DNA of 64,000 bases, taken from contig OU744450.1 of the NCBI GenBank assembly GCA_916610825.1, forward strand, positions 17,848,814 to 17,912,813, given 5' to 3'. Shown one piece after another: positions 2,778 through 44,400 of the stretch. The stretch is from Haliclystus octoradiatus (Eukaryota; Cnidaria; Staurozoa; Stauromedusae; Haliclystidae). Made by a program: the position numbers and the translations under genes. The notes under the pieces were generated by a model that worked only from the letters and a program-made list of their open reading frames with translations, did no database searches and had not been told where the DNA came from. Numbering within the stretch: position 1 is the first letter of the stretch; each line of letters starts with the position of its first letter.

Positions 2778-3084
<307 letters not shown>

Positions 3085-14400: not shown

Positions 14401-17400
14401 TCATTCGTACTAGTGCCATCATTGTTAGGCCTACCCCTGTGAAAACAGCTCACGAATGTTGAAATGGTCCAATTTTGAAAAGTTGATGGAAATTTCATAC
14501 ATATAGTTCATGAACTTTCCTATGAACTGTTCATGAAGGGTTTATAACTGCTTATAAGGGGTTCATGTGCAGTTGAAGACATTTTATTTTATAAAGCTTA
14601 TGAATAGTGGTGTATGATATTCATGAACGTAGATGAACTACAAATCAGGATATACTCATTTTATTTGGGCAATGCAAACACTTCCAGTAGATAACCCATA
14701 CATTTCCAGTGATTGTCAAAGTTTACTTCTAGTGTCTGAAACTATACTGAAAACCACCAAGACGAGAAACAAAATATTTCCATTTATAATTGGTAGTTAT
14801 CAATCAAAACTTCCATTAATGAAACACTGTAAACTAAGTTTACTTCTAGTGTCTGAAACTATACTGAAAACCACCAAGACGAAACACAAAATATTTCCAT
14901 TTATAATTTGTAGTTATCAATTAAGACTTCCATTAATGAAACACTGTAAACTAAGTTTACTTCTAGTGTTTGAACTATACTGAAAACCACCAAGACGAGA
15001 AACAAAATATTTCCATTTATAATTTGTAGTTATCAATTAAGACTTCCATTAATGAAACACTGTAAACTAAGTTTACTTCTAGTGTTTGAACTATACTGAA
15101 AACCACCAAGACGAGAAACAAAATATTTCCATTTATAATTTGTAGTTATCAATTAAGACTTCCATTAATGAAACACTGTAAACTAAGTTTACTTCTAGTG
15201 TTTGAACTATACTGAAAACCACCAAGACGAGAAACAAAATATTTCCATTTATAATTTGTAGTTATCAATTAAGACTTCCATTAATGAAACACTGTAAACT
15301 AAGTTTACTTCTAGTGTTTGAACTATACTGAAAACCACCAAGACGAGAAACAAAATATTTCCATTTATAATTTGTAGTTATCAATTAAGACTTCCATTAA
15401 TGAAACACTGTAAACTAAGTTTACTTCTAGTGTTTGAACTATACTGAATACCACCAAGACGAAACACAAAATATTTCCATTTATAATTTGTAGTTATCAA
15501 TTAAGACTTCCATTAATGAAACACTGTAAACTAAGTTTACTTCTAGTGTTTGAACTATACTGAAAACCACCAAGACGAGAAACAAAATATTTCCATTTAT
15601 AATTTGTAGTTATCAATTAAGACTTCCATTAATGAAACACTGTAAACTAAGTTTACTTCTAGTGTTTGAACTATACTGAAAACCACCAAGACGAGAAACA
15701 AAATATTTCCATTTATAATTTGTAGTTATCAATTAAGACTTCCATTAATGAAACACTGTAAACTAAGTTTACTTCTAGTGTTTGAACTATACTGAAAACC
15801 ACCAAGACGAGAAACAAAATATTTCCATTTATAATTTGTAGTTATCAATTAAGACTTCCATTAATGAAACACTGTAAACTAAGTTTACGTCTAGTGTTTG
15901 AACTATACTGAAAACCACCAAGACGAGAAACAAAATATTTCCATTTATAATTTGTAGTTATCAATTAAGACTTCCATTAATGAAACACTGTAAACTAAGT
16001 TTACTTCTAGTGTCTGAAACTATACTGAAAACCACCAAGACGAAACACAAAATATTTCCATTTATAATTTGTAGTTATCAATTAAGACTTCCATTAATGA
16101 AACACTGTAAACTAAGTTTACTTCTAGTGTTTGAACTATACTGAAAACCACCAAGACGAGAAACAAAATATTTCCATTTATAATTTGTAGTTATCAATTA
16201 AGACTTCCATTAATGAAACACTGTAAACTAAGTTTACTTCTAGTGTTTGAACTATACTGAAAACCACCAAGACGAGAAACAAAATATTTCCATTTATAAT
16301 TTGTAGTTATCAATTAAGACTTCCATTAATGAAACACTGTAAACTAAGTTTACTTCTAGTGTTTGAACTATACTGAATACCACCAAGACGAAACACAAAA
16401 TATTTCCATTTATAATTTGTAGTTATCAATTAAGACTTCCATTAATGAAACACTGTAAACTAAGTTTACTTCTAGTGTTTGAACTATACTGAAAACCACC
16501 AAGACGAGAAACAAAATATTTCCATTTATAATTTGTAGTTATCAATTAAGACTTCCATTAATGAAACACTGTAAACTAAGTTTACTTCTAGTGTTTGAAC
16601 TATACTGAAAACCACCAAGACGAGAAACAAAATATTTCCATTTATAATTTGTAGTTATCAATTGAGACTTCCATTAATGAAACACTGTAAACTAAGTTTA
16701 CTTCTAGTGTTTGAACTATACTGAAAACCACCAAGACGAGAAACAAAATATTTCCATTTATAATTTGTAGTTATCAATTAAGACTTCCATTAATGAAACA
16801 CTGTAAACTAAGTTTACTTCTAGTGTTTGAACTATACTGAAAACCACCAAGACGAAACACAAAATATTTCCATTTATAATTTGTAGTTATCAATTAAGAC
16901 TTCCATTAATGAAACACTGTAAACTAAGTTTACTTCTAGTGTCTGAAACTGTACTGAAAACCACCAAGACGAGACACAAAATATTTCCATTTGTAATTTG
17001 TAGTTATCAATTAAGACTTCCATTAATGAAACACTGTAAACTAAGTTTACTTCTAGTGTTTGAACTATACTGAAAACCACCAAGACGAGAAACAAAATAT
17101 TTCCATTTATAATTTGTAGTTATCAATTAAGACTTCCATTAATGAAACACTGTAAACTAAGTTTACTTCTAGTGTCTGAAACTATACTGAAAACCACCAA
17201 GACGAGAAACAAAATATTTCCATTTATAATTTGTAGTTATCAATTAAGACTTCCATTAATGAAACACTGTAAACTAAGTTTACTTCTAGTGTCTAAAACT
17301 GTACTGAAAACCACCAAGACGAGACACAAAATATTTCCATTTATAATTTGTAATTATCAATTAAGACTTCCATTAATGAAACACTGTAAACTAAGTTTAC

Positions 17401-20400
17401 TTCTAGTGTCTGAAACTGTACTGAAAACCACCAAGACGAGAAACAAAATATTTCCATTTATAATTTGTAGTTATCAATTAAGACTTCCATTAATGAAACA
17501 CTGTAAACTAAGTTTACTTCTAGTGTCTGAAACTGTACTGAAAACCACCAAGACGAGAAACAAAATATTTCCATTTATAATTTGTAGTTATCAATTAAGA
17601 CTTCCATTAATGAAACACTGTAAACTAAGTTTACTTCTAGTGTCTGAAACTGTACTGAAAACCACCAAGACGAGAAACAAAATATTTCCATTTATAATTT
17701 GTAGTTATCAATTAAGACTTCCATTAATGAAACACTGTAAACTAAGTTTACTTCTAGTGTCTGAAACTGTACTGAAAACCACCAAGACGAGAAACAAAAT
17801 ATTTCCATTTATAATTTGTAGTTATCAATTAAGACTTCCATTAATGAAACACTGTAAACTAAGTTTACTTCTAGTGTCTGAAACTGTACTGAAAACCACC
17901 AAGACGAGACACAAAATATTTCCATTTATAATTTGTAATTATCAATCAAGACTTCCATTAATGAAACACTGTAAACTAAGTTTACTTCTAGTGTCTGAAA
18001 CTGTACTGAAAACAACCAAGACGAGACACAAAATATTTCCATTTATAATTTGTAATTATCAATCAAGACTTCCATTAATGAAACACTGTAAACTAAGTTT
18101 ACTTCTAGTGTCTGAAACTGTACTGAAAACCACCAAGACGAGAAACAAAATATTTCCATTTATAATTTGTAATTATCAATCAAGACTTCCATTAATGAAA
18201 CACTGTAAACTAAGTTTACTTCTAGTGTCTGAAACTGTACTGAAAACCACCAAGACGAGAAACAAAATATTTCCATTTATAATTTGTAATTATCAATCAA
18301 GACTTCCATTAATGAAACACTGTAAACTAAGTTTACTTCTAGTGTCTGAAACTGTACTGAAAACCACCAAGACGAGACACAAAATATTTCCATTTATAAT
18401 TTGTAATTATCAATCAAGACTTCCATTAATGAAACACTGTAAACTAAGTTTACTTCTAGTGTCTGAAACTGTACTGAAAACCACCAAGACGAGAAACAAA
18501 ATATTTCCATTTATAATTTGTAATTATCAATCAAGACTTCCATTAATGAAACACTGTAAACTAAGTTTACTTCTAGTGTCTGAAACTGTACTGAAAACCA
18601 CCAAGACGAGACACAAAATATTTCCATTTATAATTTGTAATTATCAATCAAGACTTCCATTAATGAAACACTGTAAACTAAGTTTACTTCTAGTGTCTGA
18701 AACTGTACTGAAAACCACCAAGACGAGACACAAAATATTTCCATTTATAATTTGTAATTATCAATCAAGACTTCCATTAATGAAACACTGTAAACTAAGT
18801 TTACTTCTAGTGTCTGAAACTGTACTGAAAACCACCAAGACGAGACACAAAATATTTCCATTTATAATTTGTAATTATCAATCAAGACTTCCATTAATGA
18901 AACACTGTAAACTAAGTTTACTTCTAGTGTCTGAAACTGTACTGAAAACCACCAAGACGAGACACAAAATATTTCCATTTATAATTTGTAATTATCAATT
19001 AAGACTTCCATTAATGAAACACTGTAAACTTAGTTTACTTCTAGTGTCTGAAACTGTACTGAAAACCACCAAGACGAGACACAAAATATTTCCATTTATA
19101 ATTTGTAATTATCAATCAAGACTTCCATTAATGAAACACTGTAAACTAAGTTTACTTCTAGTGTCTGAAACTGTACTGAAAACCACCAAGACGAGACACA
19201 AAATATTTCCATTTATAATTTGTAATTATCAATCAAGACTTCCATTAATGAAACACTGTAAACTAAGTTTACTTCTAGTGTCTGAAACTGTACTGAAAAC
19301 CACCACGACGAGACACAAAATATTTCCATTTATAATTTGTAATTATCAATCAAGACTTCCATTAATGAAACACTGTAAACTAAGTTTACTTCTAGTGTCT
19401 GAAACTGTACTGAAAACCACCAAGACGAGACACAAAATATTTCCATTTATAATTTGTAGTTATCAATTAAGACTTCCATTAATGAAACACTGTAAACTAA
19501 GTTTACTTTTAGTGTCTGAAACTGTACTGAAAACCACCAAGACGAGACACAAAATATTTCCATTTATAATTTTTAATTATCAATCAAGACTTCCATTAAT
19601 GAAACACTGTAAACTAAGTTTACTTCTAGTGTCTGAAACTGTACTGAAAACCACCAAGACGAGACACAAAATATTTCCATTTATAATTTGTAGTTATCAA
19701 TTAAGACTTCCATTAATGAAACACTGTAAACTAAGTTTACTTCTAGTGTCTGAAACTGTACTGAAAACCACCAAGACGAGACACAAAATATTTCCATTTA
19801 TAATTTGTAATTATCAATCAAGACTTCCATTAATGAAACACTGTAAACTAAGTTTACTTCTAGTGTCTGAAACTATACTGAAAACCACCAAGACGAGACA
19901 CAAAATATTCCCATTTATAATTTGTAATTATCAATCAAGACTTCCATTAATGAAACACTGTAAACCAAGTTTACTTCTAGTGTCTGAAACTATACTGAAA
20001 ACCACCAAGACGAGACACAAAATATTTCCATTTATAATTTGTAATTATCAATCAAGACTTCCATTAATGAAACACTGTAAACTAAGTTTACTTCTAGTGT
20101 TTGAACTATACTGAAAACCACCAAGACGAGACACAAAATATTCCCATTTATAATTTGTAATTATCAATCAAGACTTCCATTAATGAAACACTGTAAACTA
20201 AGTTTACTTCTAGTGTTTGAACTATACTGAAAACCACCAAGACGAGACACAAAATATTTCCATTTATAATTTGTAATTATCAATTAAGACTTCCATTAAT
20301 GAAACACTGTAAACTAAGTTTACTTCTAGTGTTTGAACTATACTGAAAACCACCAAGACGAGACACAAAATATTTCCATTTATAATTTGTAATTATCAAT

Positions 20401-23400
20401 CAAGACTTCCATTAATGAAACACTGTAAACTAAGTTTACTTCTAGTGTTTGAACTATACTGAATACCACCAAGACGAGACACAAAACATTTCCATTTATA
20501 ATTTGTAGTTATCAATCAAGACTTCCATTAATGAAACACTGTAAACTAAGTTTACTTCTAGTGTTTGAACTATACTGAAAACCACCAAGACGAGACACAA
20601 AATATTTCCATTTATAATTTGTAGTTATCAATCAAGACTTCCATTAATGAAACACTGTAAACTAAGTTTACTTCTAGTGTTTGAACTATACTGAAAACCA
20701 CCAAGACGAGACACAAAATATTTCCATTTATAATTTGTAATTATCAATCAAGACTTCCATTAATGAAACACTGTAAACTAAGTTTACTTCTAGTGTTTGA
20801 ACTATACTGAAAACCACCAAGACGAGACACAAAATATTTCCATTTATAATTTGTAGTTATCAATCAAGACTTCCATTAATGAAACACTGTAAACTAAGTT
20901 TACTTCTAGTGTTTGAACTATACTGAAAACCACCAAGACGAGACACAAAATATTTCCATTTATAATTTGTAATTATCAATTAAGACTTCCATTAATGAAA
21001 CACTGTAAACTAAGTTTACTTCTAGTGTCTGAAACTGTACTGAAAACCACCAAGACGAGACACAAAATATATCCATTTATAATTTGTAATTATCAATCAA
21101 GACTTCCATTAATGAAACACTGTAAACTAAGTTTACTTCTAGTGTTTGAACTATACTGAAAACCACCAAGACGAGACACAAAATATTTCCATTTATAATT
21201 TGTAGTTATCAATTAAGACTTCCATTAATGAAACACTGTAAACTAAGTTTACTTCTAGTGTCAGAAACTGTACTGAAAACCACCAAGACGAGACACAAAA
21301 TATTTCCATTTATAATTTGTAGTTATCAATCAAGACTTCCATTAATGAAACACTGTAAACTAAGTTTACTTCTAGTGTCTGAAACTGTACTGAAAACCAC
21401 CAAGACGAGAAACAAAATATTTCCATTTATAATTTGTAGTTATCAATCAAGACTTCCATTAATGAAACACTGTAAACTAAGTTTACTTCTAGTGTCTGAA
21501 ACTGTACTGAAAACCACCAAGACGAGACACAAAATATATCCATTTATAATTTGTAATTATCAATCAAGACTTCCATTAATGAAACACTGTAAACTAAGTT
21601 TACTTCTAGTGTTTGAACTATACTGAAAACCACCAAGACGAGACACAAAATATTTCCATTTATAATTTGTAGTTATCAATTAAGACTTCCATTAATGAAA
21701 CACTGTAAACTAAGTTTACTTCTAGTGTCTGAAACTGTACTGAAAACCACCAAGACGAGACACAAAATATTTCCATTTATAATTTGTAGTTATCAATCAA
21801 GACTTCCATTAATGAAACAGTGTAAACTAAGTTTACTTCTAGTGTCTGAAACTGTACTGAAAACCACCAAGACGAGAAACAAAATATTTCCATTTATAAT
21901 TTGAAGTTATCAATCAAGACTTCCATTAATGAAACACTGTAAACTAAGTTTACTTCTAGTGTCTGAAACTATACTGAAAACCACCAAGACGAGACACAAA
22001 ATATTTCCATTTATAATTTGTAGTTATTAATTAAGACTTCCATTAATGAAACACTGTAAACTAAGTTTACTTCTAGTGTTTGAACTATACTGAAAACCAC
22101 CAAGACGAGACACAAAATATTTCCATTTATAATTTGTAATTATCAATTTAGACTTCCATTACTGAAACACTGTAAACTAAGTTTACTTCTAGTGTTTGAA
22201 CTATACTGAATACCACCAAGACGAGACACAAAACATTTCCATTTATAATTTGTAGTTATCAATCAAGACTTCCATTAATGAAACACTGTAAACTAAGTTT
22301 ACTTCTAGTGTCTGAAACTGTACTGAAAACCACCAAGACGAGACACAAAATATTTCCATTTATAATTTGTAGTTATCAATCAAGACTTCCATTAATGAAA
22401 CACTGTAAACTAAGTTTACTTCTAGTGTCTGAAACTATACTGAAAACCACCAAGACGAGACACAAAATATTTCCATTTATAATTTGTAGTTATCAATCAA
22501 GACTTCCATTAATGAAACACTGTAAACTAAGTTTACTTCTAGTGTCTGAAACTATACTGAATACCACCAAGACGAGACACAAAACATTTCCATTTATAAT
22601 TTGTAGTTATCAATCAAGACTTCCATTAATGAAACACTGTAAACTAAGTTTACTTCTAGTGTTTGAACTATACTGAAAACCACCAAGACGAGACACAAAA
22701 TATTTCCATTTATAATTTGTAGTTATCAATCAAGACTTCCATTAATGAAACACTGTAAACTAAGTTTACTTCTAGTGTTTGAACTATACTGAAAACCACC
22801 AAGACGAGACACAAAATATTTCCATTTATAATTTGTAATTATCAATCAAGACTTCCATTAATGAAACACTGTAAACTAAGTTTACTTCTAGTGTTTGAAC
22901 TATACTGAAAACCACCAAGACGAGACACAAAATATTTCCATTTATAATTTGTAGTTATCAATCAAGACTTCCATTAATGAAACACTGTAAACTAAGTTTA
23001 CTTCTAGTGTTTGAACTATACTGAAAACCACCAAGACGAGACACAAAATATTTCCATTTATAATTTGTAATTATCAATTAAGACTTCCATTAATGAAACA
23101 CTGTAAACTAAGTTTACTTCTAGTGTCTGAAACTGTACTGAAAACCACCAAGACGAGACACAAAATATATCCATTTATAATTTGTAATTATCAATCAATA
23201 CTTCCATTAATGAAACACTGTAAACTAAGTTTACTTCTAGTGTTTGAACTATACTGAAAACCACCAAGACGAGACACAAAATATTTCCATTTATAATTTG
23301 TAGTTATCAATTAAGACTTCCATTAATGAAACACTGTAAACTAAGTTTACTTCTAGTGTCAGAAACTGTACTGAAAACCACCAAGACGAGACACAAAATA

Positions 23401-26400
23401 TTTCCATTTATAATTTGTAGTTATCAATCAAGACTTCCATTAATGAAACAGTGTAAACTAAGTTTACTTCTAGTGTCTGAAACTGTACTGAAAACCACCA
23501 AGACGAGAAACAAAATATTTCCATTTATAATTTGTAGTTATCAATCAAGACTTCCATTAATGAAACACTGTAAACTAAGTTTACTTCTAGTGTCTGAAAC
23601 TATACTGAAAACCACCAAGACGAGACACAAAATATATCCATTTATAATTTGTAATTATCAATCAAGACTTCCATTAATGAAACACTGTAAACTAAGTTTA
23701 CTTCTAGTGTTTGAACTATACTGAAAACCACCAAGACGAGACACAAAATATTTCCATTTATAATTTGTAGTTATCAATCAAGACTTCCATTAATGAAACA
23801 CTGTAAACTAAGTTTACTTCTAGTGTCTGAAACTGTACTGAAAACCACCAAGACGAGACACAAAATATTTCCATTTATAATTTGTAGTTATCAATCAAGA
23901 CTTCCATTAATGAAACAGTGTAAACTAAGTTTACTTCTAGTGTCTGAAACTGTACTGAAAACCACCAAGACGAGAAACAAAATATTTCCATTTATAATTT
24001 GTAGTTATCAATCAAGACTTCCATTAATGAAACACTGTAAACTAAGTTAACTTCTAGTGTCTGAAACTATACTGAAAACCACCAAGACGAGACACAAAAT
24101 ATTTCCATTTATAATTTGTAGTTATTAATTAAGACTTCCATTAATGAAACACTGTAAACTAAGTTTACTTCTAGTGTTTGAACTATACTGAAAACCACCA
24201 AGACGAGACACAAAATATTTCCATTTATAATTTGTAATTATCAATTTAGACTTCCATTACTGAAACACTGTAAACTAAGTTTACTTCTAGTGTTTGAACT
24301 ATACTGAAAACCACCAAGACGAGACACAAAACATTTCCATTTATAATTTGTAGTTATCAATCAAGACTTCCATTAATGAAACACTGTAAACTAAGTTTAC
24401 TTCTAGTGTCTGAAACTATACTGAAAACCACCAAGACGAGACACAAAATATTTCCATTTATAATTTGTAGTTATCAATCAAGACTTCCATTAATGAAACA
24501 CTGTAAACTAAGTTTACTTCTAGTGTCTGAAACTATACTGAAAACCACCAAGACGAGACACAAAATATTTCCATTTATAATTTGTAGTTATCAATCAAGA
24601 CTTCCATTAATGAAACACTGTAAACTAAGTTTACTTCTAGTGTCTGAAACTATACTGAAAACCACCAAGACGAGACACAAAATATTTCCATTTATAATTT
24701 GTAATTATCAATTAAGACTTCCATTAATGAAACACTGTAAACTAAGTTTACTTCTAGTGTTTGAACTATACTGAATACCACCAAGACGAGACACAAAACA
24801 TTTCCATTTATAATTTGTAGTTATCAATCAAGACTTCCATTAATGAAACACTGTAAACTAAGTTTACTTCTAGTGTCTGAAACTGTACTGAAAACCACCA
24901 AGACGAGACACAAAATATTTCCATTTATAATTTGTAGTTATCAATCAAGACTTCCATTAATGAAACACTGTAAACTAAGTTTACTTCTAGTGTTTGAACT
25001 ATACTGAAAACCACCAAGACGAGACACAAAATATTTCCATTTATAATTTGTAATTATCAATTAAGACTTCCATTAATGAAACACTGTAAACTAAGTTTAC
25101 TTCTAGTGTTTGAACTATACTGAAAACCACCAAGACGAGACACAAAATATTTCCATTTATAATTTGTAATTATCAATTAAGACTTCCATTAATGAAACAC
25201 TGTAAACTAAGTTTACTTCTAGTGTTTGAACTATACTGAAAACCACCAAGACGAGACACAAAATATTTCCATTTATAATTTGTAATTATCAATTAAGACT
25301 TCCATTAATGAAACACTGTAAACTAAGTTTACTTCTAGTGTTTGAACTATACTGAAAACCACCAAGACGAGACACAAAATATTTCCATTTATAATTTGTA
25401 ATTATCAATTAAGACTTCCATTAATGAAACACTGTAAACTAAGTTTACTTCTAGTGTTTGAACTATACTGAAAACCACCAAGACGAGACACAAAATATTC
25501 CCATTTATAATTTGCAGTTATCAATCAAGACTTCCATTAATGAAACACTGTAAACTAAGTTTACTTCTAGTGTTTGAACTATACTGAAAACCACCAAGAC
25601 GAGACACAAAATATTTCCATTTATAATTTGTAGTTATCAATCAAGACTTCCATTAATGAAACACTGTAAACTAAGTTTACTTCTAGTGTTTGAACTATAC
25701 TGAAAACCACCAAGACGAGACACAAAATATTTCCATTTATAATTTGTAGTTATCAATCAAGACTTCCATTAATGAAACACTGTAAACTAAGTTTACTTCT
25801 AGTGTTTGAACTATACTGAAAACCACCAAGACGAGACACAAAATATTTCCATTTGTAATTTGTAGTTATCAATTAAGACTTCCATTAATGAAACACTGTA
25901 AACTAAGTTTACTTCTAGTGTCTGAAACTGTACTGAAAACCACCAAGACGAGACACAAAATATATCCATTTATAATTTGTAATTATCAATCAAGACTTCC
26001 ATTAATGAAACACTGTAAACTAAGTTTACTTCTAGTGTTTGAACTATACTGAAAACCACCAAGACGAGACACAAAATATTTCCATTTATAATTTGTAGTT
26101 ATCAATTAAGACTTCCATTAATGAAACACTGTAAACTAAGTTTACTTCTAGTGTCTGAAACTGTACTGAAAACCACCAAGACGAGACACAAAATATTTCC
26201 ATTTATAATTTGTAGTTATCAATCAAGACTTCCATTAATGAAACAGTGTAAACTAAGTTTACTTCTAGTGTCTGAAACTGTACTGAAAACCACCAAGACG
26301 AGAAACAAAATATTTCCATTTATAATTTGTAGTTATCAATCAAGACTTCCATTAATGAAACACTGTAAACTAAGTTTACTTCTAGTGTCTGAAACTATAC

Positions 26401-29400
26401 TGAAAACCACCAAGACGAGACACAAAATATTTCCATTTATAATTTGTAGTTATTAATTAAGACTTCCATTAATGAAACACTGTAAACTAAGTTTACTTCT
26501 AGTGTTTGAAACTATACTGAAAACCACCAAGACGAGACACAAAATATTTCCATTTATAATTTGTAGTTATCAATCAAGACTTCCATTAATGAAACACTGT
26601 AAACTAAGTTTACTTCTAGTGTCTGAAACTGTACTGAAAACCACCAAGACGAGACACAAAATATTTCCATTTATAATTTGCAGTTATCAATCAAGACTTC
26701 CATTAATGAAACACTGTAAACTAAGTTTACTTCTAGTGTTTGAACTATACTGAAAACCACCAAGACGAGACACAAAATATATCCATTTATAATTTGTAAT
26801 TATCAATCAAGACTTCCATTAATGAAACACTGTAAACTAAGTTTACTTCTAGTGTTTGAACTATACTGAAAACCACCAAGACGAGACACAAAATATTTCC
26901 ATTTATAATTTGTAGTTATCAATTAAGACTTCCATTAATGAAACACTGTAAACTAAGTTTACTTCTAGTGTCAGAAACTGTACTGAAAACCACCAAGACG
27001 AGACACAAAATATTTCCATTTATAATTTGTAGTTATCAATCAAGACTTCCATTAATGAAACAGTGTAAACTAAGTTTACTTCTAGTGTCTGAAACTGTAC
27101 TGAAAACCACCAAGACGAGAAACAAAATATTTCCATTTATAATTTGTAATTATCAATCAAGACTTCCATTAATGAAACACTGTAAACTAAGTTTACTTCT
27201 AGTGTCTGAAACTGTACTGAAAACCACCAAGACGAGACACAAAATATATCCATTTATAATTTGTAATTATCAATCAAGACTTCCATTAATGAAACACTGT
27301 AAACTAAGTTTACTTCTAGTGTTTGAACTATACTGAAAACCACCAAGACGAGACACAAAATATTTCCATTTATAATTTGTAGTTATCAATTAAGACTTCC
27401 ATTAATGAAACACTGTAAACTAAGTTTACTTCTAGTGTCAGAAACTGTACTGAAAACCACCAAGACGAGAAACAAAATATTTCCATTTATAATTTGTAGT
27501 TATCAATCAAGACTTCCATTAATGAAACACTGTAAACTAAGTTTACTTCTAGTGTCTGAAACTGTACTGAAAACCACCAAGACGAGACACAAAATATATC
27601 CATTTATAATTTGTAATTATCAATCAAGACTTCCATTAATGAAACACTGTAAACTAAGTTTACTTCTAGTGTTTGAACTATACTGAAAACCACCAAGACG
27701 AGACACAAAATATTTCCATTTATAATTTGTAGTTATCAATTAAGACTTCCATTAATGAAACACTGTAAACTAAGTTTACTTCTAGTGTCTGAAACTGTAC
27801 TGAAAACCACCAAGACGAGACACAAAATATTTCCATTTATAATTTGTAGTTATCAATCAAGACTTCCATTAATGAAACAGTGTAAACTAAGTTTACTTCT
27901 AGTGTCTGAAACTGTACTGAAAACCACCAAGACGAGAAACAAAATATTTCCATTTATAATTTGTAGTTATCAATCAAGACTTCCATTAATGAAACACTGT
28001 AAACTAAGTTAACTTCTAGTGTCTGAAACTATACTGAAAACCACCAAGACGAGACACAAAATATTTCCATTTATAATTTGTAGTTATTAATTAAGACTTC
28101 CATTAATGAAACACTGTAAACTAAGTTTACTTCTAGTGTTTGAACTATACTGAAAACCACCAAGACGAGACACAAAATATTTCCATTTATAATTTGTAAT
28201 TATCAATTTAGACTTCCATTACTGAAACACTGTAAACTAAGTTTACTTCTAGTGTTTGAACTATACTGAATACCACCAAGACGAGACACAAAACATTTCC
28301 ATTTATAATTTGTAGTTATCAATCAAGACTTCCATTAATGAAACACTGTAAACTAAGTTTACTTCTAGTGTCTGAAACTGTACTGAAAACTACCAAGACG
28401 AGACACAAAATATTTCCATTTATAATTTGTAGTTATCAATCAAGACTTCCATTAATGAAACACTGTAAACTAAGTTTACTTCTAGTGTCTGAAACTATAC
28501 TGAAAACCACCAAGACGAGACACAAAATATTTCCATTTATAATTTGTAGTTATCAATCAAGACTTCCATTAATGAAACACTGTAAACTAAGTTTACTTCT
28601 AGTGTCTGAAACTATACTGAAAACCACCAAGACGAGACACAAAATATTTCCATTTATAATTTGTAATTATCAATTAAGACTTCCATTAATGAAACACTGT
28701 AAACTAAGTTTACTTCTAGTGTTTGAACTATACTGAATACCACCAAGACGAGACACAAAACATTTCCATTTATAATTTGTAGTTATCAATCAAGACTTCC
28801 ATTAATGAAACACTGTAAACTAAGTTTACTTCTAGTGTCTGAAACTGTACTGAAAACCACCAAGACGAGACACAAAATATTTCCATTTATAATTTGTAGT
28901 TATCAATCAAGACTTCCATTAATGAAACACTGTAAACTAAGTTTACTTCTAGTGTTTGAACTATACTGAAAACCACCAAGACGAGACACAAAATATTTCC
29001 ATTTATAATTTGTAATTATCAATTAAGACTTCCATTAATGAAACACTGTAAACTAAGTTTACTTCTAGTGTTTGAACTATACTGAAAACCACCAAGACGA
29101 GACACAAAATATTTCCATTTATAATTTGTAATTATCAATTAAGACTTCCATTAATGAAACACTGTAAACTAAGTTTACTTCTAGTGTTTGAACTATACTG
29201 AAAACCACCAAGACGAGACACAAAATATTTCCATTTATAATTTGTAATTATCAATTAAGACTTCCATTAATGAAACACTGTAAACTAAGTTTACTTCTAG
29301 TGTTTGAACTATACTGAAAACCACCAAGACGAGACACAAAATATTTCCATTTATAATTTGTAATTATCAATTAAGACTTCCATTAATGAAACACTGTAAA

Positions 29401-32400: not shown

Positions 32401-35400
32401 TAAGACTTCCATTAATGAAACACTGTAAACTAAGTTTACTTCTAGTGTCAGAAACTGTACTGAAAACCACCAAGACGAGACACAAAATATTTCCATTTAT
32501 AATTTGTAGTTATCAATCAAGACTTCCATTAATGAAACACTGTAAACTAAGTTTACTTCTAGTGTCTGAAACTGTACTGAAAACCACCAAGACGAGAAAC
32601 AAAATATTTCCATTTATAATTTGTAGTTATCAATCAAGACTTCCATTAATGAAACACTGTAAACTAAGTTTACTTCTAGTGTCTGAAACTGTACTGAAAA
32701 CCACCAAGACGAGACACAAAATATATCCATTTATAATTTGTAATTATCAATCAAGACTTCCATTAATGAAACACTGTAAACTAAGTTTACTTCTAGTGTT
32801 TGAACTATACTGAAAACCACCAAGACGAGACACAAAATATTTCCATTTATAATTTGTAGTTATCAATCAAGACTTCCATTAATGAAACACTGTAAACTAA
32901 GTTTACTTCTAGTGTCTGAAACTGTACTGAAAACCACCAAGACGAGACACAAAATATTTCCATTTATAATTTGTAGTTATCAATCAAGACTTCCATTAAT
33001 GAAACAGTGTAAACTAAGTTTACTTCTAGTGTCTGAAACTGTACTGAAAACCACCAAGACGAGAAACAAAATATTTCCATTTATAATTTGTAGTTATCAA
33101 TCAAGACTTCCATTAATGAAACACTGTAAACTAAGTTAACTTCTAGTGTCTGAAACTATACTGAAAACCACCAAGACGAGACACAAAATATTTCCATTTA
33201 TAATTTGTAGTTATTAATTAAGACTTCCATTAATGAAACACTGTAAACTAAGTTTACTTCTAGTGTTTGAACTATACTGAAAACCACCAAGACGAGACAC
33301 AAAATATTTCCATTTATAATTTGTAATTATCAATTTAGACTTCCATTACTGAAACACTGTAAACTAAGTTTACTTCTAGTGTTTGAACTATACTGAATAC
33401 CACCAAGACGAGACACAAAACATTTCCATTTATAATTTGTAGTTATCAATTAAGACTTCCATTAATGAAACACTGTAAACTAAGTTTACTTCTAGTGTCA
33501 GAAACTGTACTGAAAACCACCAAGACGAGACACAAAATATTTCCATTTATAATTTGTAGTTATCAATCAAGACTTCCATTAATGAAACACTGTAAACTAA
33601 GTTTACTTCTAGTGTCTGAAACTATACTGAAAACCACCAAGACGAGACACAAAATATTTCCATTTATAATTTGTAGTTATCAATCAAGACTTCCATTAAT
33701 GAAACACTGTAAACTAAGTTTACTTCTAGTGTCTGAAACTATACTGAAAACCACCAAGACGAGACACAAAATATTTCCATTTATAATTTGTAATTATCAA
33801 TTAAGACTTCCATTAATGAAACACTGTAAACTAAGTTTACTTCTAGTGTTTGAACTATACTGAATACCACCAAGACGAGACACAAAACATTTCCATTTAT
33901 AATTTGTAGTTATCAATCAAGACTTCCATTAATGAAACACTGTAAACTAAGTTTACTTCTAGTGTCTGAAACTGTACTGAAAACCACCAAGACGAGACAC
34001 AAAATATTTCCATTTATAATTTGTAGTTATCAATCAAGACTTCCATTAATGAAACACTGTAAACTAAGTTTACTTCTAGTGTTTGAACTATACTGAAAAC
34101 CACCAAGACGAGACACAAAATATTTCCATTTATAATTTGTAATTATCAATTAAGACTTCCATTAATGAAACACTGTAAACTAAGTTTACTTCTAGTGTTT
34201 GAACTATACTGAAAACCACCAAGACGAGACACAAAATATTTCCATTTATAATTTGTAATTATCAATTAAGACTTCCATTAATGAAACACTGTAAACTAAG
34301 TTTACTTCTAGTGTTTGAACTATACTGAAAACCACCAAGACGAGACACAAAATATTTCCATTTATAATTTGTAATTATCAATTAAGACTTCCATTAATGA
34401 AACACTGTAAACTAAGTTTACTTCTAGTGTTTGAACTATACTGAAAACCACCAAGACGAGACACAAAATATTTCCATTTATAATTTGTAATTATCAATTA
34501 AGACTTCCATTAATGAAACACTGTAAACTAAGTTTACTTCTAGTGTTTGAACTATACTGAAAACCACCAAGACGAGACACAAAATATTCCCATTTATAAT
34601 TTGCAGTTATCAATCAAGACTTCCATTAATGAAACACTGTAAACTAAGTTTACTTCTAGTGTTTGAACTATACTGAAAACCACCAAGACGAGACACAAAA
34701 TATTTCCATTTATAATTTGTAGTTATCAATCAAGACTTCCATTAATGAAACACTGTAAACTAAGTTTACTTCTAGTGTTTGAACTATACTGAAAACCACC
34801 AAGACGAGACACAAAATATTTCCATTTATAATTTGTAGTTATCAATCAAGACTTCCATTAATGAAACACTGTAAACTAAGTTTACTTCTAGTGTTTGAAC
34901 TATACTGAAAACCACCAAGACGAGACACAAAATATTTCCATTTGTAATTTGTAGTTATCAATTAAGACTTCCATTAATGAAACACTGTAAACTAAGTTTA
35001 CTTCTAGTGTCTGAAACTGTACTGAAAACCACCAAGACGAGACACAAAATATATCCATTTATAATTTGTAATTATCAATCAAGACTTCCATTAATGAAAC
35101 ACTGTAAACTAAGTTTACTTCTAGTGTTTGAACTATACTGAAAACCACCAAGACGAGACACAAAATATTTCCATTTATAATTTGTAGTTATCAATTAAGA
35201 CTTCCATTAATGAAACACTGTAAACTAAGTTTACTTCTAGTGTCTGAAACTGTACTGAAAACCACCAAGACGAGACACAAAATATTTCCATTTATAATTT
35301 GTAGTTATCAATCAAGACTTCCATTAATGAAACAGTGTAAACTAAGTTTACTTCTAGTGTCTGAAACTGTACTGAAAACCACCAAGACGAGAAACAAAAT

Positions 35401-38400
35401 ATTTCCATTTATAATTTGTAGTTATCAATCAAGACTTCCATTAATGAAACACTGTAAACTAAGTTTACTTCTAGTGTCTGAAACTATACTGAAAACCACC
35501 AAGACGAGACACAAAATATTTCCATTTATAATTTGTAGTTATTAATTAAGACTTCCATTAATGAAACACTGTAAACTAAGTTTACTTCTAGTGTTTGAAA
35601 CTATACTGAAAACCACCAAGACGAGACACAAAATATTTCCATTTATAATTTGTAGTTATCAATCAAGACTTCCATTAATGAAACACTGTAAACTAAGTTT
35701 ACTTCTAGTGTCTGAAACTGTACTGAAAACCACCAAGACGAGACACAAAATATTTCCATTTATAATTTGCAGTTATCAATCAAGACTTCCATTAATGAAA
35801 CACTGTAAACTAAGTTTACTTCTAGTGTTTGAACTATACTGAAAACCACCAAGACGAGACACAAAATATATCCATTTATAATTTGTAATTATCAATCAAG
35901 ACTTCCATTAATGAAACACTGTAAACTAAGTTTACTTCTAGTGTTTGAACTATACTGAAAACCACCAAGACGAGACACAAAATATTTCCATTTATAATTT
36001 GTAGTTATCAATTAAGACTTCCATTAATGAAACACTGTAAACTAAGTTTACTTCTAGTGTCAGAAACTGTACTGAAAACCACCAAGACGAGACACAAAAT
36101 ATTTCCATTTATAATTTGTAGTTATCAATCAAGACTTCCATTAATGAAACAGTGTAAACTAAGTTTACTTCTAGTGTCTGAAACTGTACTGAAAACCACC
36201 AAGACGAGAAACAAAATATTTCCATTTATAATTTGTAGTTATCAATCAAGACTTCCATTAATGAAACACTGTAAACTAAGTTTACTTCTAGTGTCTGAAA
36301 CTGTACTGAAAACCACCAAGACGAGACACAAAATATATCCATTTATAATTTGTAATTATCAATCAAGACTTCCATTAATGAAACACTGTAAACTAAGTTT
36401 ACTTCTAGTGTTTGAACTATACTGAAAACCACCAAGACGAGACACAAAATATTTCCATTTATAATTTGTAGTTATCAATTAAGACTTCCATTAATGAAAC
36501 ACTGTAAACTAAGTTTACTTCTAGTGTCAGAAACTGTACTGAAAACCACCAAGACGAGAAACAAAATATTTCCATTTATAATTTGTAGTTATCAATCAAG
36601 ACTTCCATTAATGAAACACTGTAAACTAAGTTTACTTCTAGTGTCTGAAACTGTACTGAAAACCACCAAGACGAGACACAAAATATTTCCATTTATAATT
36701 TGCAGTTATCAATCAAGACTTCCATTAATGAAACACTGTAAACTAAGTTTACTTCTAGTGTTTGAACTATACTGAAAACCACCAAGACGAGACACAAAAT
36801 ATTTCCATTTATAATTTGTAGTTATCAATCAAGACTTCCATTAATGAAACACTGTAAACTAAGTTTACTTCTAGTGTTTGAACTATACTGAAAACCACCA
36901 AGACGAGACACAAAATATTTCCATTTATAATTTGTAGTTATCAATCAAGACTTCCATTAATGAAACACTGTAAACTAAGTTTACTTCTAGTGTTTGAACT
37001 ATACTGAAAACCACCAAGACGAGACACAAAATATTTCCATTTGTAATTTGTAGTTATCAATTAAGACTTCCATTAATGAAACACTGTAAACTAAGTTTAC
37101 TTCTAGTGTCTGAAACTGTACTGAAAACCACCAAGACGAGACACAAAATATATCCATTTATAATTTGTAATTATCAATCAAGACTTCCATTAATGAAACA
37201 CTGTAAACTAAGTTTACTTCTAGTGTTTGAACTATACTGAAAACCACCAAGACGAGACACAAAATATTTCCATTTATAATTTGTAGTTATCAATCAAGAC
37301 TTCCATTAATGAAACACTGTAAACTAAGTTTACTTCTAGTGTCTGAAACTGTACTGAAAACCACCAAGACGAGACACAAAATATTTCCATTTATAATTTG
37401 TAGTTATCAATCAAGACTTCCATTAATGAAACAGTGTAAACTAAGTTTACTTCTAGTGTCTGAAACTGTACTGAAAACCACCAAGACGAGAAACAAAATA
37501 TTTCCATTTATAATTTGTAGTTATCAATCAAGACTTCCATTAATGAAACACTGTAAACTAAGTTAACTTCTAGTGTCTGAAACTATACTGAAAACCACCA
37601 AGACGAGACACAAAATATTTCCATTTATAATTTGTAGTTATTAATTAAGACTTCCATTAATGAAACACTGTAAACTAAGTTTACTTCTAGTGTTTGAACT
37701 ATACTGAAAACCACCAAGACGAGACACAAAATATTTCCATTTATAATTTGTAATTATCAATTAAGACTTCCATTACTGAAACACTGTAAACTAAGTTTAC
37801 TTCTAGTGTTTGAACTATACTGAATACCACCAAGACGAGACACAAAACATTTCCATTTATAATTTGTAGTTATCAATCAAGACTTCCATTAATGAAACAC
37901 TGTAAACTAAGTTTACTTCTAGTGTCTGAAACTGTACTGAAAACCACCAAGACGAGACACAAAATATTTCCATTTATAATTTGTAGTTATCAATCAAGAC
38001 TTCCATTAATGAAACACTGTAAACTAAGTTTACTTCTAGTGTCTGAAACTATACTGAAAACCACCAAGACGAGACACAAAATATTTCCATTTATAATTTG
38101 TAGTTATCAATCAAGACTTCCATTAATGAAACACTGTAAACTAAGTTTACTTCTAGTGTCTGAAACTATACTGAAAACCACCAAGACGAGACACAAAATA
38201 TTTCCATTTATAATTTGTAATTATCAATTAAGACTTCCATTAATGAAACACTGTAAACTAAGTTTACTTCTAGTGTTTGAACTATACTGAATACCACCAA
38301 GACGAGACACAAAACATTTCCATTTATAATTTGTAGTTATCAATCAAGACTTCCATTAATGAAACACTGTAAACTAAGTTTACTTCTAGTGTCTGAAACT

Positions 38401-41400
38401 GTACTGAAAACCACCAAGACGAGACACAAAATATTTCCATTTATAATTTGTAGTTATCAATCAAGACTTCCATTAATGAAACACTGTAAACTAAGTTTAC
38501 TTCTAGTGTTTGAACTATACTGAAAACCACCAAGACGAGACACAAAATATTTCCATTTATAATTTGTAATTATCAATTAAGACTTCCATTAATGAAACAC
38601 TGTAAACTAAGTTTACTTCTAGTGTTTGAACTATACTGAAAACCACCAAGACGAGACACAAAATATTTCCATTTATAATTTGTAATTATCAATTAAGACT
38701 TCCATTAATGAAACACTGTAAACTAAGTTTACTTCTAGTGTTTGAACTATACTGAAAACCACCAAGACGAGACACAAAATATTTCCATTTATAATTTGTA
38801 GTTATCAATTAAGACTTCCATTAATGAAACACTGTAAACTAAGTTTACTTCTAGTGTTTGAACTATACTGAAAACCACCAAGACGAGACACAAAATATTT
38901 CCATTTATAATTTGTAATTATCAATTAAGACTTCCATTAATGAAACACTGTAAACTAAGTTTACTTCTAGTGTTTGAACTATACTGAAAACCACCAAGAC
39001 GAGACACAAAATATTCCCATTTATAATTTGCAGTTATCAATCAAGACTTCCATTAATGAAACACTGTAAACTAAGTTTACTTCTAGTGTTTGAACTATAC
39101 TGAAAACCACCAAGACGAGACACAAAATATTTCCATTTATAATTTGTAGTTATCAATCAAGACTTCCATTAATGAAACACTGTAAACTAAGTTTACTTCT
39201 AGTGTTTGAACTATACTGAAAACCACCAAGACGAGACACAAAATATTTCCATTTATAATTTGTAGTTATCAATCAAGACTTCCATTAATGAAACACTGTA
39301 AACTAAGTTTACTTCTAGTGTTTGAACTATACTGAAAACCACCAAGACGAGACACAAAATATTTCCATTTGTAATTTGTAGTTATCAATTAAGACTTCCA
39401 TTAATGAAACACTGTAAACTAAGTTTACTTCTAGTGTCTGAAACTGTACTGAAAACCACCAAGACGAGACACAAAATATATCCATTTATAATTTGTAATT
39501 ATCAATCAAGACTTCCATTAATGAAACACTGTAAACTAAGTTTACTTCTAGTGTTTGAACTATACTGAAAACCACCAAGACGAGACACAAAATATTTCCA
39601 TTTATAATTTGTAGTTATCAATTAAGACTTCCATTAATGAAACACTGTAAACTAAGTTTACTTCTAGTGTCTGAAACTGTACTGAAAACCACCAAGACGA
39701 GACACAAAATATTTCCATTTATAATTTGTAGTTATCAATCAAGACTTCCATTAATGAAACAGTGTAAACTAAGTTTACTTCTAGTGTCTGAAACTGTACT
39801 GAAAACCACCAAGACGAGAAACAAAATATTTCCATTTATAATTTGTAGTTATCAATCAAGACTTCCATTAATGAAACACTGTAAACTAAGTTTACTTCTA
39901 GTGTCTGAAACTATACTGAAAACCACCAAGACGAGACACAAAATATTTCCATTTATAATTTGTAGTTATTAATTAAGACTTCCATTAATGAAACACTGTA
40001 AACTAAGTTTACTTCTAGTGTTTGAAACTATACTGAAAACCACCAAGACGAGACACAAAATATTTCCATTTATAATTTGTAGTTATCAATCAAGACTTCC
40101 ATTAATGAAACACTGTAAACTAAGTTTACTTCTAGTGTCTGAAACTGTACTGAAAACCACCAAGACGAGACACAAAATATTTCCATTTATAATTTGCAGT
40201 TATCAATCAAGACTTCCATTAATGAAACACTGTAAACTAAGTTTACTTCTAGTGTTTGAACTATACTGAAAACCACCAAGACGAGACACAAAATATTTCC
40301 ATTTATAATTTGTAGTTATCAATCAAGACTTCCATTAATGAAACACTGTAAACTAAGTTTACTTCTAGTGTTTGAACTATACTGAAAACCACCAAGACGA
40401 GACACAAAATATTTCCATTTATAATTTGTAGTTATCAATCAAGACTTCCATTAATGAAACACTGTAAACTAAGTTTACTTCTAGTGTTTGAACTATACTG
40501 AAAACCACCAAGACGAGACACAAAATATTTCCATTTGTAATTTGTAGTTATCAATTAAGACTTCCATTAATGAAACACTGTAAACTAAGTTTACTTCTAG
40601 TGTCTGAAACTGTACTGAAAACCACCAAGACGAGACACAAAATATATCCATTTATAATTTGTAATTATCAATCAAGACTTCCATTAATGAAACACTGTAA
40701 ACTAAGTTTACTTCTAGTGTTTGAACTATACTGAAAACCACCAAGACGAGACACAAAATATTTCCATTTATAATTTGTAGTTATCAATTAAGACTTCCAT
40801 TAATGAAACACTGTAAACTAAGTTTACTTCTAGTGTCTGAAACTGTACTGAAAACCACCAAGACGAGACACAAAATATTTCCATTTATAATTTGTAGTTA
40901 TCAATCAAGACTTCCATTAATGAAACAGTGTAAACTAAGTTTACTTCTAGTGTCTGAAACTGTACTGAAAACCACCAAGACGAGAAACAAAATATTTCCA
41001 TTTATAATTTGTAGTTATCAATCAAGACTTCCATTAATGAAACACTGTAAACTAAGTTTACTTCTAGTGTCTGAAACTATACTGAAAACCACCAAGACGA
41101 GACACAAAATATTTCCATTTATAATTTGTAGTTATTAATTAAGACTTCCATTAATGAAACACTGTAAACTAAGTTTACTTCTAGTGTTTGAAACTATACT
41201 GAAAACCACCAAGACGAGACACAAAATATTTCCATTTATAATTTGTAGTTATCAATCAAGACTTCCATTAATGAAACACTGTAAACTAAGTTTACTTCTA
41301 GTGTCTGAAACTGTACTGAAAACCACCAAGACGAGACACAAAATATTTCCATTTATAATTTGTAGTTATCAATTAAGACTTCCATTAATGAAACACTGTA

Positions 41401-44400
41401 AACTAAGTTTACTTCTAGTGTTTGAACTATACTGAAAACCACCAAGACGAGACACAAAACATTTCCATTTATAATTTGTAGTTATCAATCAAGACTTCCA
41501 TTAATGAAACACTGTAGACTAATGAATTACTGTCCTTAGATAATAGCTATTACAATGAAACCCTGTTAATATCACCTCGGTTGATATCATGACCCGCCTA
41601 ATATCACAGTTTTTCAGAAACCGGTTGCCGCTCTTTATGAAATTCAACTAACTAGATAATATCACAATTCCTATTTATATCACAATTTCTAGGCAGCATT
41701 TTGATTGAAAACCCACTTTGCGTCTTTAGATCCAATCAATGCATGACTTATATCATTGGATTCGTCTTAACCCGAAGGCGTCCTTCCAATGCTTTATTTC
41801 TTCGATTGGCCAAGTTTTGACGGAAAAATAACCAAAAACTGTTTTTTTATTTGTTCGCAATGCCGCGCTATTCAATAGAGCTGCTTAATCAAGCAGTTCC
41901 ATACATGATAAACATTCTATGGTCTAGAAACATTGGAGCAGAACACCCTTTTGTTATTTCTCTAAACCGGCACTTCCACATTATAATGATAGCTGGGTGT
42001 GTAACAAAAGCAGCAGTGAAAACGCAATAATATAAAAATAAATGCAAACAAACTCTTCATTCTTCAGTTACAAATATCATCAATTCAGAAATCAATCTAT
42101 GAAATTCGTTCCGACAATTAAATAAGGCCTACAGCCTGCTGCAATGAAGATGTGTTTCCAGTCAACCACATAAAAAGTTGATGAAAACGCAGTCTGCATC
42201 ACAAATAAGAATTGAACTAGTTGAAACTTGAAAATCTAAACAAGTCCGGCAATTTATTACTTCCTCGGTCTCAACAGTGAAACGAAATATAATATTGAAG
42301 TGTTGAATTACAGTATTCAAAATTGTGATCTAATTGTTAATGATAATTCACAAGATTACAAATTAATCGTACAATATAGCCTACATAGCATAAATTTGAA
42401 GTACAAGCCCCAAAGTGTATCTCTGGTTCTACATCGACGGGGAGGGCGGGGTGTCACTTCGAAAAAAGTGAAGTATCCAAAGAGTTCTGAAAACTTGAAA
42501 AAGCTACCCCAAAATTCTAAAAATCTAGAAACATTATTTCAACTTTTTTCTTTTTCTTTCAATGTTCTTCAGACAGATTCCAAATTCACTTTTTTAAAAA
42601 TCTATGGCATTTTAAAAAAGAGACCCAAAAAGTATCCAAAAATCTGAAACTTTCTATAAATTACTTTCATCAGCTGGGATATGGACTCCCAAAAATTGGC
42701 ACGTCTCAAAATTCCCTTCATATGAGAGTTACCCCCCGGGTTACAAGGAACTATAGAGAGCGTGTAGCAAATTACAGACGGAACATTGAAAGTCCTAATA
42801 CAAGAACAAGTAGATTAAACGCTAACAGAGAGACTGTCGCAGCTACAAAAGATAGTTAAACACCACGTAGTAGAGAGAGCAAATTGCAAGTGACTCATAC
42901 AGTTATTTTGGCAACTATAAGAGACAGTGAAACACCAAATACGAGGGAAAGAAGATTACAAGCAAATGGCAATCTGGTAGCAAATATACAGGACTCTCAA
43001 ACGTCAAATACGAGGGATCCATCCAAGCAGATCCATCCATTTTCCATCAATTTTCTGGTCTGCTCGAAAGTCTTTGGGAAGGCAAATATGCTTATTTGTA
43101 AGGGTATAAATACGACATTATTTTGCTGAAATTACACTCATTGAGTGTAACTTGGTGACTAGTTTGTCAAATTTTTCCTTATATTTTTAGCGGTCCAACT
43201 AAACTGGGAAGATCGCGCATAATATTTTGCATGAAAAAGTACTTTTTAGAAATTTTTTACTCGAGCAGTATAATTTACATTTATGTATTCAAAATGCTGT
43301 AAAAAATTCAAAAATGTTATCAACAACATTTCCATTGTACAATATCGTAAATATCCATACTTATATATCCTACTTAGACTTCATCATACATCATATAAAT
43401 TTCAAAACTTTTTTCTTTTGGACCACCCTAATGAGCAGTTAATGAACAATGGACTCAGTAAATTGCTTTGCATTGATATACCTCAAATCACTGTGGTGAA
43501 AAAGCTGTAATAAACTTCTTTTAGTGACCAAATACTGATTAGTAGGCCTAGATATAACAATAATGATAAATTATTTTTGTTTGTCTTAGAGCTACCCCAT
43601 ATGTAGCCTGCACGCAGACCCAAATCTGTTTCCACGATTAGTAGGGTCTGCGTAATATCGACAGAAAGCTTGCGCTGGACTGAATTAGGGGAGTGGCTAA
43701 ACGTGATAAAATCTATTGTTCGTTGATTGTTCGTCAGCCAATCGCTAGCGATTTCTGAAAAACTAGAACCAGATCATGATTGGCTGTTGGACAATAGACG
43801 GACAATAGATTTCTCACGTTCAGCCACTCCCCTAATTCAGTCCAGCGGAAGATTTCTGTTGTTACTACGCAGACCCTACTAATCATAAAAAAAGATTTGG
43901 GTCTGTGCGCAGGCTACCCCACATGATGTTTATCATCTTTTTAAGAAATTGCATTAGCCTACAGAAAGTTAGACTTTTACCCAGGATGATATGCCTAGCC
44001 CAACATGATAATTCTTATCAAGTAAATTGAAACATTGAGTGTTCTGCCAAACAGCAGTCTACAAAATATCCCCTGTGAAACAAATTAATTAAGTCATGCA
44101 CGGTTCATAAACTTTATGAACAGCTCATACACAGTTTATGAGCGAATCATGAATCGGTTCATGAACATGAAATAGCCCCAGATTTTCATGAACACTTCAT
44201 AAATATTTGGAAAAATTTCACGTTAATGAACTTATGAACTTACTTTATAGATCGCTTGGTGTAAAAACTGCAATGCTTAGTTGTGATGATCTTAATAAAC
44301 ATTATCCGTGGATGAATACTGATGGTATTGAAGCTGGATCAATTGGTAAGTTTTAGAGGGGCAAACGTCACAAGAATGATCAATCAGTAAGTAATGATTT

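What the first reader, a model, noticed from the sequence alone, without database searches (positions are those of the whole stretch)
14721..41524. A 26.8-kb satellite array lies inside an intron of a conserved gene
About 230 tandem 116/117-bp monomers sit between FOXRED1 exon 2 (ends 14395) and exon 3 (starts 44251). Both exons are intact and in phase, so the gene appears to splice across a 29.9-kb intron made almost wholly of satellite. Satellites of this size are usually centromeric or heterochromatic; having one transcribed in a housekeeping gene is unusual. It raises questions about satellite RNA, intron retention and copy-number variation affecting complex I assembly.
Basis: seen in the sequence. 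Interest (0 to 1): 0.75.

Follow-up and report, generated by a model that had tools for sequence, protein, structure and literature searches.

The report
Single-locus satellite array in FOXRED1 intron
In a stalked jellyfish genome, one intron of a probable mitochondrial gene holds a 27-kb run of 230 near-identical 117-base repeats found in that assembly only there, most likely a local and still-shifting repeat expansion that the gene simply splices out.

Summary
TRF gives 14719-41522: 230 head-to-tail monomers (122 of 117 bp, 108 of 116 bp), mean 97.6% to consensus. They fill 89.8% of a 29,855-bp phase-2 intron (14396-44250). The gene's seven exons give one open 426-aa FAD-dependent oxidoreductase, with no other close copy found in the genome. 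The name FOXRED1 rests on recall, not on a tool. Contig lengths identify Haliclystus octoradiatus jrHalOcto1.1, chromosome 5. A shared, genome-wide satellite is not supported: all 223 genome matches of a monomer 17-mer lie in this array. One diverged relative was found, a single unit plus the array's left flank (71% over 192 bp), beside a hedgehog-domain exon. Best explanation: one unit of a low-copy sequence was amplified in place, then homogenised by unequal exchange and conversion. Support: overlapping internal duplications of 2.8-6.1 kb at 99.87-99.89%, and four-gamete failures that rise with distance. On the transcribed strand the array has no AATAAA/ATTAAA and no strong 5' splice site, so it can plausibly be spliced over. 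Transcription, splicing, copy-number variation and effects on complex I could not be tested. A known kind; a good example.

The parts
14719..41522 (+). Tandem array: 230 head-to-tail monomers of 117 bp (122) or 116 bp (108), 26.8 kb
   Evidence: TRF; monomer alignment
14396..44250 (+). FOXRED1-like intron 2, 29,855 bp, phase 2, donor GTGAAT, acceptor AG
11428..11628 (+). Exon 1 (coding part)
   Evidence: spliced frame open; genome tblastn match
14166..14395 (+). Exon 2, upstream of the array
44251..44345 (+). Exon 3, downstream of the array
48914..49056 (+). Exon 4
50498..50752 (+). Exon 5
51121..51222 (+). Exon 6
51747..52001 (+). Exon 7 to about the stop codon (coding part; exact stop read from the printed sequence)
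14626..14817 (+). Left flank plus most of the first monomer: the stretch that is 71% identical to C10:20333720-20333897, beside a hedgehog-domain exon; marks the ancestral single unit
   Evidence: local alignment score 132 against shuffles with mean 22.5, sd 2.6, max 31.5 of 200
21479..36627 (+). Zone of internal segmental duplication; for example 21479-27538 repeated at 30568-36627 (6,060 bp, 7 differences, offset 78 monomers)
41721..43175 (.). Dispersed element of about 1.45 kb in the same intron, right of the array; 3' end approximate
   Evidence: 39 scored genome matches of 184 candidates, 87-95% identity over its first 376 bases; extent from alignments to 20 fetched copies

Best explanation
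A single-locus, private satellite (a very large intronic VNTR). An old low-copy sequence of about 190 bp lay in intron 2 of a FOXRED1-like gene. A 117-bp segment at its right part was duplicated in tandem, grew to 230 copies, and is kept homogeneous and rearranged by unequal sister or homologous exchange and gene conversion. It persists because it lies inside an intron on a strand without common poly(A) signals or strong 5' splice sites, so the transcript can be spliced across it. Shown: array, uniqueness of the 17-mer, single diverged relative, internal duplications, recombinant monomers. Inferred: the exchange mechanism, splicing across it, tolerance (near-neutrality), and copy-number polymorphism between animals.
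For: Array and monomer statistics. Confined to this locus: 223 of 223 genome matches of a 17-mer; 26.8 kb is 0.010% of the assembly. A diverged single-unit relative that also carries the array's left flank, which suggests one unit was there before expansion. It carries CTGAAAC, G78 and C87, so the 117-bp form looks ancestral; the 116-bp form has C18T plus loss of A21 in 108 of 230 monomers, with 5 monomers that have C18T but keep A21, a stepwise origin followed by spread. Overlapping internal duplications: offsets of 34, 38, 44, 78 and 116 monomers, 2,796-6,060 bp, 3-7 differences (99.87-99.89%), against 96.7% mean identity between monomers. Four-gamete test: 37 of 153 column pairs fail, 18 of 153 with every class at 3 or more; by distance 1 of 27 (1-10 bp), 12 of 51 (11-30), 20 of 53 (31-60), 4 of 22 (61-100, where the circular distance is short again). 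Transcribed strand: 0 AATAAA and 0 ATTAAA (Markov means 45.5 and 42.9), best 5' splice-site score 1.6 against 4.7-8.9 at the gene's own six donors.
Against: No reads, RNA or second individual were available. The monomer DNA search is weak for common words: one search did not even return the array itself, so other diverged copies may exist. The left 46 monomers are not clearly more diverged than the rest (within 96.8%, within rest 96.8%, between 96.5%), so the classic pattern of diverged array edges is weak. Absence of poly(A) and splice signals in one 117-mer is not itself significant, because all copies descend from one unit. Weak acceptor-like sites (TTTACTTCTAG) recur in 221 copies. Four-gamete failure can also come from recurrent mutation.
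Confidence: 0.8

Rival explanations
1. Assembly effect on copy number: the array is real but its length, or some of its internal duplications, come from joining two haplotypes or from mis-assembly of near-identical repeats.
For: Internal duplications are 99.87-99.89% identical, close to what two alleles could show. The genome note reports that curation removed 33 haplotypic duplications and fixed 260 missing or mis-joins.
Against: Several different offsets (18, 34, 38, 44, 78, 116 monomers) overlap, not one. The longest exact repeat is 2,730 bp, shorter than usual HiFi reads (read length recalled, not seen). No gap in the window. Assembly QV 56.6.
Confidence: 0.12
2. Mobile origin: the tandem unit came as part of a transposable element (many elements carry internal tandem repeats) and expanded after insertion.
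For: The relative beside the hedgehog-domain exon shows the ~190-bp stretch is duplicated between chromosomes. Transposon-like termini lie near the array in the same intron (14434 and 44070), and a dispersed element starts at 41721. The monomer ends form a 15-bp palindrome at the junctions, GTAAACT-A-AGTTTAC, 223 times, which could be remains of terminal inverted repeats.
Against: Only one other copy was found. The unit and its left flank do not match the complete 3.2-kb element at 45067-48259, the right flank or the left region above shuffles, nor the 40-odd-copy family next to the hedgehog copy (score 21 against shuffle mean 22.7). No target-site duplication was found or sought around the 190-bp stretch.
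Confidence: 0.15
3. Functional array: it acts as a chromosome-specific centromere or heterochromatin nucleator, or its length sets timing or output of FOXRED1 transcription.
For: Size and homogeneity resemble centromeric arrays. In Drosophila, satellite-filled introns impose a special expression programme (PMC6508621, abstract seen). All monomers share one orientation and a stable strand skew (GC skew about -0.20 to -0.26).
Against: Monomer not found on the other chromosomes. No conserved RNA family; RNA folding no better than shuffles (z 0.28 sense, -1.13 antisense). It sits inside a gene.
Confidence: 0.05

Closest known systems
Satellite-containing gigantic introns of Drosophila kl-3 and kl-5 (PMC6508621, abstract seen)
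   Same: Tandem satellite fills most of an intron of a protein-coding gene and must be transcribed and spliced out.
   Different: Those are megabases of simple satellite in male-fertility genes on the Y (Y recalled); this is 26.8 kb of a 117-bp complex unit on an autosome-like chromosome, in a probable housekeeping gene.
Euchromatic complex satellites of Drosophila, such as 1.688 and Rsp-like (PMC7919458, passages seen)
   Same: Complex monomers of 100 bp or more in gene-rich DNA, also inside introns, with fast turnover.
   Different: Those are families at many loci; here the family is private to one locus.
TCAST-like satellite elements near and in genes of Tribolium (PMC3411249, start of abstract seen in the listing)
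   Same: Satellite-type sequence within genes in euchromatin.
   Different: Related to a major pericentromeric satellite; no such major satellite was found for this monomer.
Large intronic VNTRs / macrosatellites of vertebrates (recalled)
   Same: Single-locus tandem arrays of tens of kilobases, expected to vary in copy number.
   Different: Copy-number variation not tested here.

Membership tests
Satellite DNA (complex, long-array) | Head-to-tail tandem monomers over about 100 bp in arrays of tens of kb | tested here: met
   230 monomers, 26.8 kb
Satellite DNA (complex, long-array) | Homogenised by concerted evolution | tested here: met
   96.7% mean pairwise identity, 53 distinct monomers of 230, block duplications at 99.87-99.89%
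Satellite DNA (complex, long-array) | Many loci or an appreciable genome fraction | tested here: not met
   One locus, 0.010% of the assembly; reads outside the assembly not searched
Satellite DNA (complex, long-array) | Heterochromatic packaging | not testable with these tools
   no chromatin data
Centromeric satellite of this species | Monomer shared among chromosomes | tested here: not met
   223 of 223 17-mer matches in this array; one diverged single copy on C10. A chromosome-specific centromere is not excluded
Intronic VNTR / intronic satellite | Lies wholly inside an intron with intact, in-phase flanking exons | tested here: met
   Intron 14396-44250, open 426-aa frame
Intronic VNTR / intronic satellite | Copy number varies between alleles | not testable with these tools
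   Alternate haplotype GCA_916610655.1 exists but is not held
Intronic VNTR / intronic satellite | Host transcript is spliced across it | not testable with these tools
   RNA-seq run ERR9434978 is named in the genome note but is not held
FOXRED1 (complex I assembly factor) | FAD-dependent oxidoreductase (DAO) fold family over the full length | tested here: met
   PF01266, E 4e-57, profile positions 1-353 of 353
FOXRED1 (complex I assembly factor) | Closer to FOXRED1 than to sarcosine oxidase, DMGDH and other DAO members | tested here: inconclusive
   No FOXRED1 chain among the 35 PDB sequences listed (best 1y56_B, sarcosine oxidase, E 1.2e-33). Likeness to human FOXRED1 is recalled. The spacing of the human R352 and N430 (from PMC7887287) was set against a guessed RKR motif (90-92 residues) and did not match, so no residue was assigned
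Transposon-derived satellite | Monomer corresponds to part of a dispersed mobile element | tested here: inconclusive
   One other diverged copy only; no match to two nearby element families above shuffles

The most novel reading that the evidence does not exclude
A gene-resident satellite caught at birth that does something: its length or chromatin sets the timing or amount of a complex I assembly factor, or it serves as a private, chromosome-specific centromere or heterochromatin seed in a cnidarian.
Probability: 0.05. Interest if true: 0.75.

Novelty: new member of a known kind. Interest (0 to 1): 0.32.

Why it matters
It is a clean, complete and gap-free example of how a long array can arise at one place from one unit, with a single-unit relative still present to give direction to the changes. 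It shows what splicing can apparently tolerate in a gene likely to be essential. It is also a ready natural test: if array length varies between animals, one can ask directly whether tens of kilobases of satellite in an intron change expression of a mitochondrial gene. The genome note suggests that unusual gene structures may lower its BUSCO score; introns like this one are a concrete case.

Tried and rejected
Centromere or genome-wide satellite: rejected as the leading idea because the 17-mer is confined to this locus. RNA gene or ribozyme unit: Rfam at gathering threshold gave 0 matches for the window; the relaxed search of 14400-15100 gave 3 matches far below gathering scores, none a hammerhead; folding is ordinary. 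Protein-coding repeat: one sense frame is open for 1,016 codons at 17064-20111, but 108 of 230 monomers are 116 bp and shift the frame, so chance is preferred. Unit as part of the 3.2-kb element with GTTCATGAAC repeats, or of the intron's other flanks: no similarity above shuffles. Unit as a member of the dispersed family (48 matches from 68 candidates, 40 scored) found next to the hedgehog copy: not supported. The seven offsets were chosen by me; the shorter ones gave 99.60% (18 monomers, 1,981 bp) and 100% (10 monomers, 1,049 bp). The 5' splice-site matrix is a human-like one written from recall. Paper searches (listings) showed no description of this array; one search found 4 papers with Haliclystus and satellite, of which I saw passages of one (PMC9112765) and part 1 of 2 of the genome note (PMC9975415). 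A first gene model with a wrong start coordinate failed and was corrected. An early protein query held a few non-exonic residues; the later ones did not.
Full report
What is there. A tandem array occupies 14719-41522. Aligned one by one, it is 230 consecutive monomers in one orientation, 122 of 117 bp and 108 of 116 bp, with no inserted base and no other sequence inside; mean identity to the consensus is 97.6%, lowest 94.9%, and 53 distinct sequences occur. Mean pairwise identity is 96.7%. The window contains no ambiguous base. Chance is not an issue at this score (49,065 in TRF).

Where it is. The largest contigs (39,977,743; 28,991,210; 20,733,292 bases) equal the longest, N50 and N90 lengths printed for Haliclystus octoradiatus jrHalOcto1.1; both have 33 scaffolds and nine large ones hold 98.3%. 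The window is C6:17848814-17912813, whose 27.81 Mb match chromosome 5. The array lies 64% along it. The species name is thus inferred from lengths, not from a marker gene.

The gene. Seven exons at 11428-11628, 14166-14395, 44251-44345, 48914-49056, 50498-50752, 51121-51222 and from 51747 join to one open 426-aa chain with GT-AG ends at all six introns. Intron lengths are 2,537, 29,855, 4,568, 1,449, 368 and 524 bp. The chain matches PF01266 over its whole length (E 4e-57). In the genome, 17 tblastn matches were scored: 7 are these exons at 87-99%, the other 10 are 24-45% identical, so no second close copy was found. The best solved relatives are sarcosine oxidase and dimethylglycine dehydrogenase. 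The name FOXRED1 agrees with my recall of the human protein but was not proved. FOXRED1 is a complex I assembly factor (PMC7887287, passages seen).

Private to one locus. A 17-base stretch of the monomer occurs 223 times on one strand and 0 on the other in the genome, and all 223 are in the window's array. The 15-base junction palindrome occurs 223 times forward, all in the window, and once in reverse elsewhere; its backward-read control occurred 8 and 4 times. A 117-base search returned one match, C10:20333801-20333897, 75%; this tool skips very common words and did not return the array, so it can miss copies.

A single-unit relative. With the left flank included, the match grows to window 14626-14817 against C10:20333720-20333897, 71%. 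The local alignment scores 132, while 200 shuffles average 22.5 and reach at most 31.5. It lies about 230 bp after an exon that encodes part of a hedgehog signalling domain (PF01085, E 7.8e-13) and ends at a GT. Beyond the unit's base 99 the two differ; there the C10 copy runs into a piece of another dispersed family. This suggests one unit plus its left flank existed before the array, and it gives direction: the relative has the C18, A21, G78 and C87 states.

How it grew. The 116-bp form carries C18T and loss of A21 in 108 monomers; 5 have C18T only; none has the loss with C18. The array carries overlapping internal duplications. Of the seven offsets I examined, five (34, 38, 44, 78, 116 monomers) give 2,796-6,060 bp with 3-7 differences, 99.87-99.89%; offset 18 gives 99.60% over 1,981 bp and offset 10 gives 100% over 1,049 bp. 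The longest exact repeat is 2,730 bp. Among 153 pairs of variable columns, 37 show all four combinations, rarely within 10 bp (1 of 27) and most often at 31-60 bp (20 of 53); pairs 61-100 bp apart, which are close on the circular unit, show 4 of 22. That is the pattern of exchange or conversion between monomers. Against the classic model, the left 46 monomers are hardly more diverged than the rest.

Can the gene live with it. On the transcribed strand the array has no AATAAA or ATTAAA; its best 5' splice-site score is 1.6, while the gene's six donors score 4.7-8.9. Weak variants exist: AATATA 18 times in sense; AGTAAA 225 and TATAAA 223 times in antisense; a weak acceptor-like site in 221 copies. 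As all copies descend from one unit, this is not evidence of selection, only of compatibility with splicing. The sense strand is poor in G (GC skew about -0.20 to -0.26), which from general knowledge disfavours R-loops behind polymerase. No RNA family or unusual folding was found.

Verdict. The most likely account is a private intronic satellite born in place and still rearranging. Mobile origin, assembly effects on length, and function remain rivals at lower odds. The kind is known; the single-locus status, the relative that shows the ancestral unit and the absence of any gap make it a useful case.

Noticed in passing
45067-48259: Element of about 3.2 kb in the next intron with inverted ends CCCCTGCGAAA and clusters of the palindrome GTTCATGAAC near both ends; looks like a non-autonomous DNA transposon.
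   Followed up: partly
whole window, e.g. 285-396, 1768-1846, 53276-53698, 58189-58322: GTTCATGAAC occurs 43 times against 0.13 expected; its doubled form occurs at 564 places genome-wide, among the places listed often as paired clusters about 2.5-2.9 kb apart.
   Followed up: partly
41721-43175: Dispersed element of about 1.45 kb with many copies at roughly 85-95% identity, starting about 200 bp right of the array.
   Followed up: partly
14434 and 44070: Termini-like CCCCTGTGAAA sequences with nearby degenerate GTTCATGAAC repeats close to both ends of the array intron, both in the same orientation.
   Followed up: partly
43640-43880: Fold-back sequence seen by eye: a stretch near 43640 recurs inverted near 43880, MITE-like.
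   Followed up: no
2855-3069: Perfect run of about 72 TAT triplets.
   Followed up: no
17064-20111: Sense frame open for 1,016 codons inside the array, where 117-bp monomers run together.
   Followed up: partly
L056:560-1090 (C2:29764359-29764889): Dispersed family of about 0.5 kb, 48 matches found in the genome; a 56-bp piece lies beside the single-unit copy on C10.
   Followed up: partly
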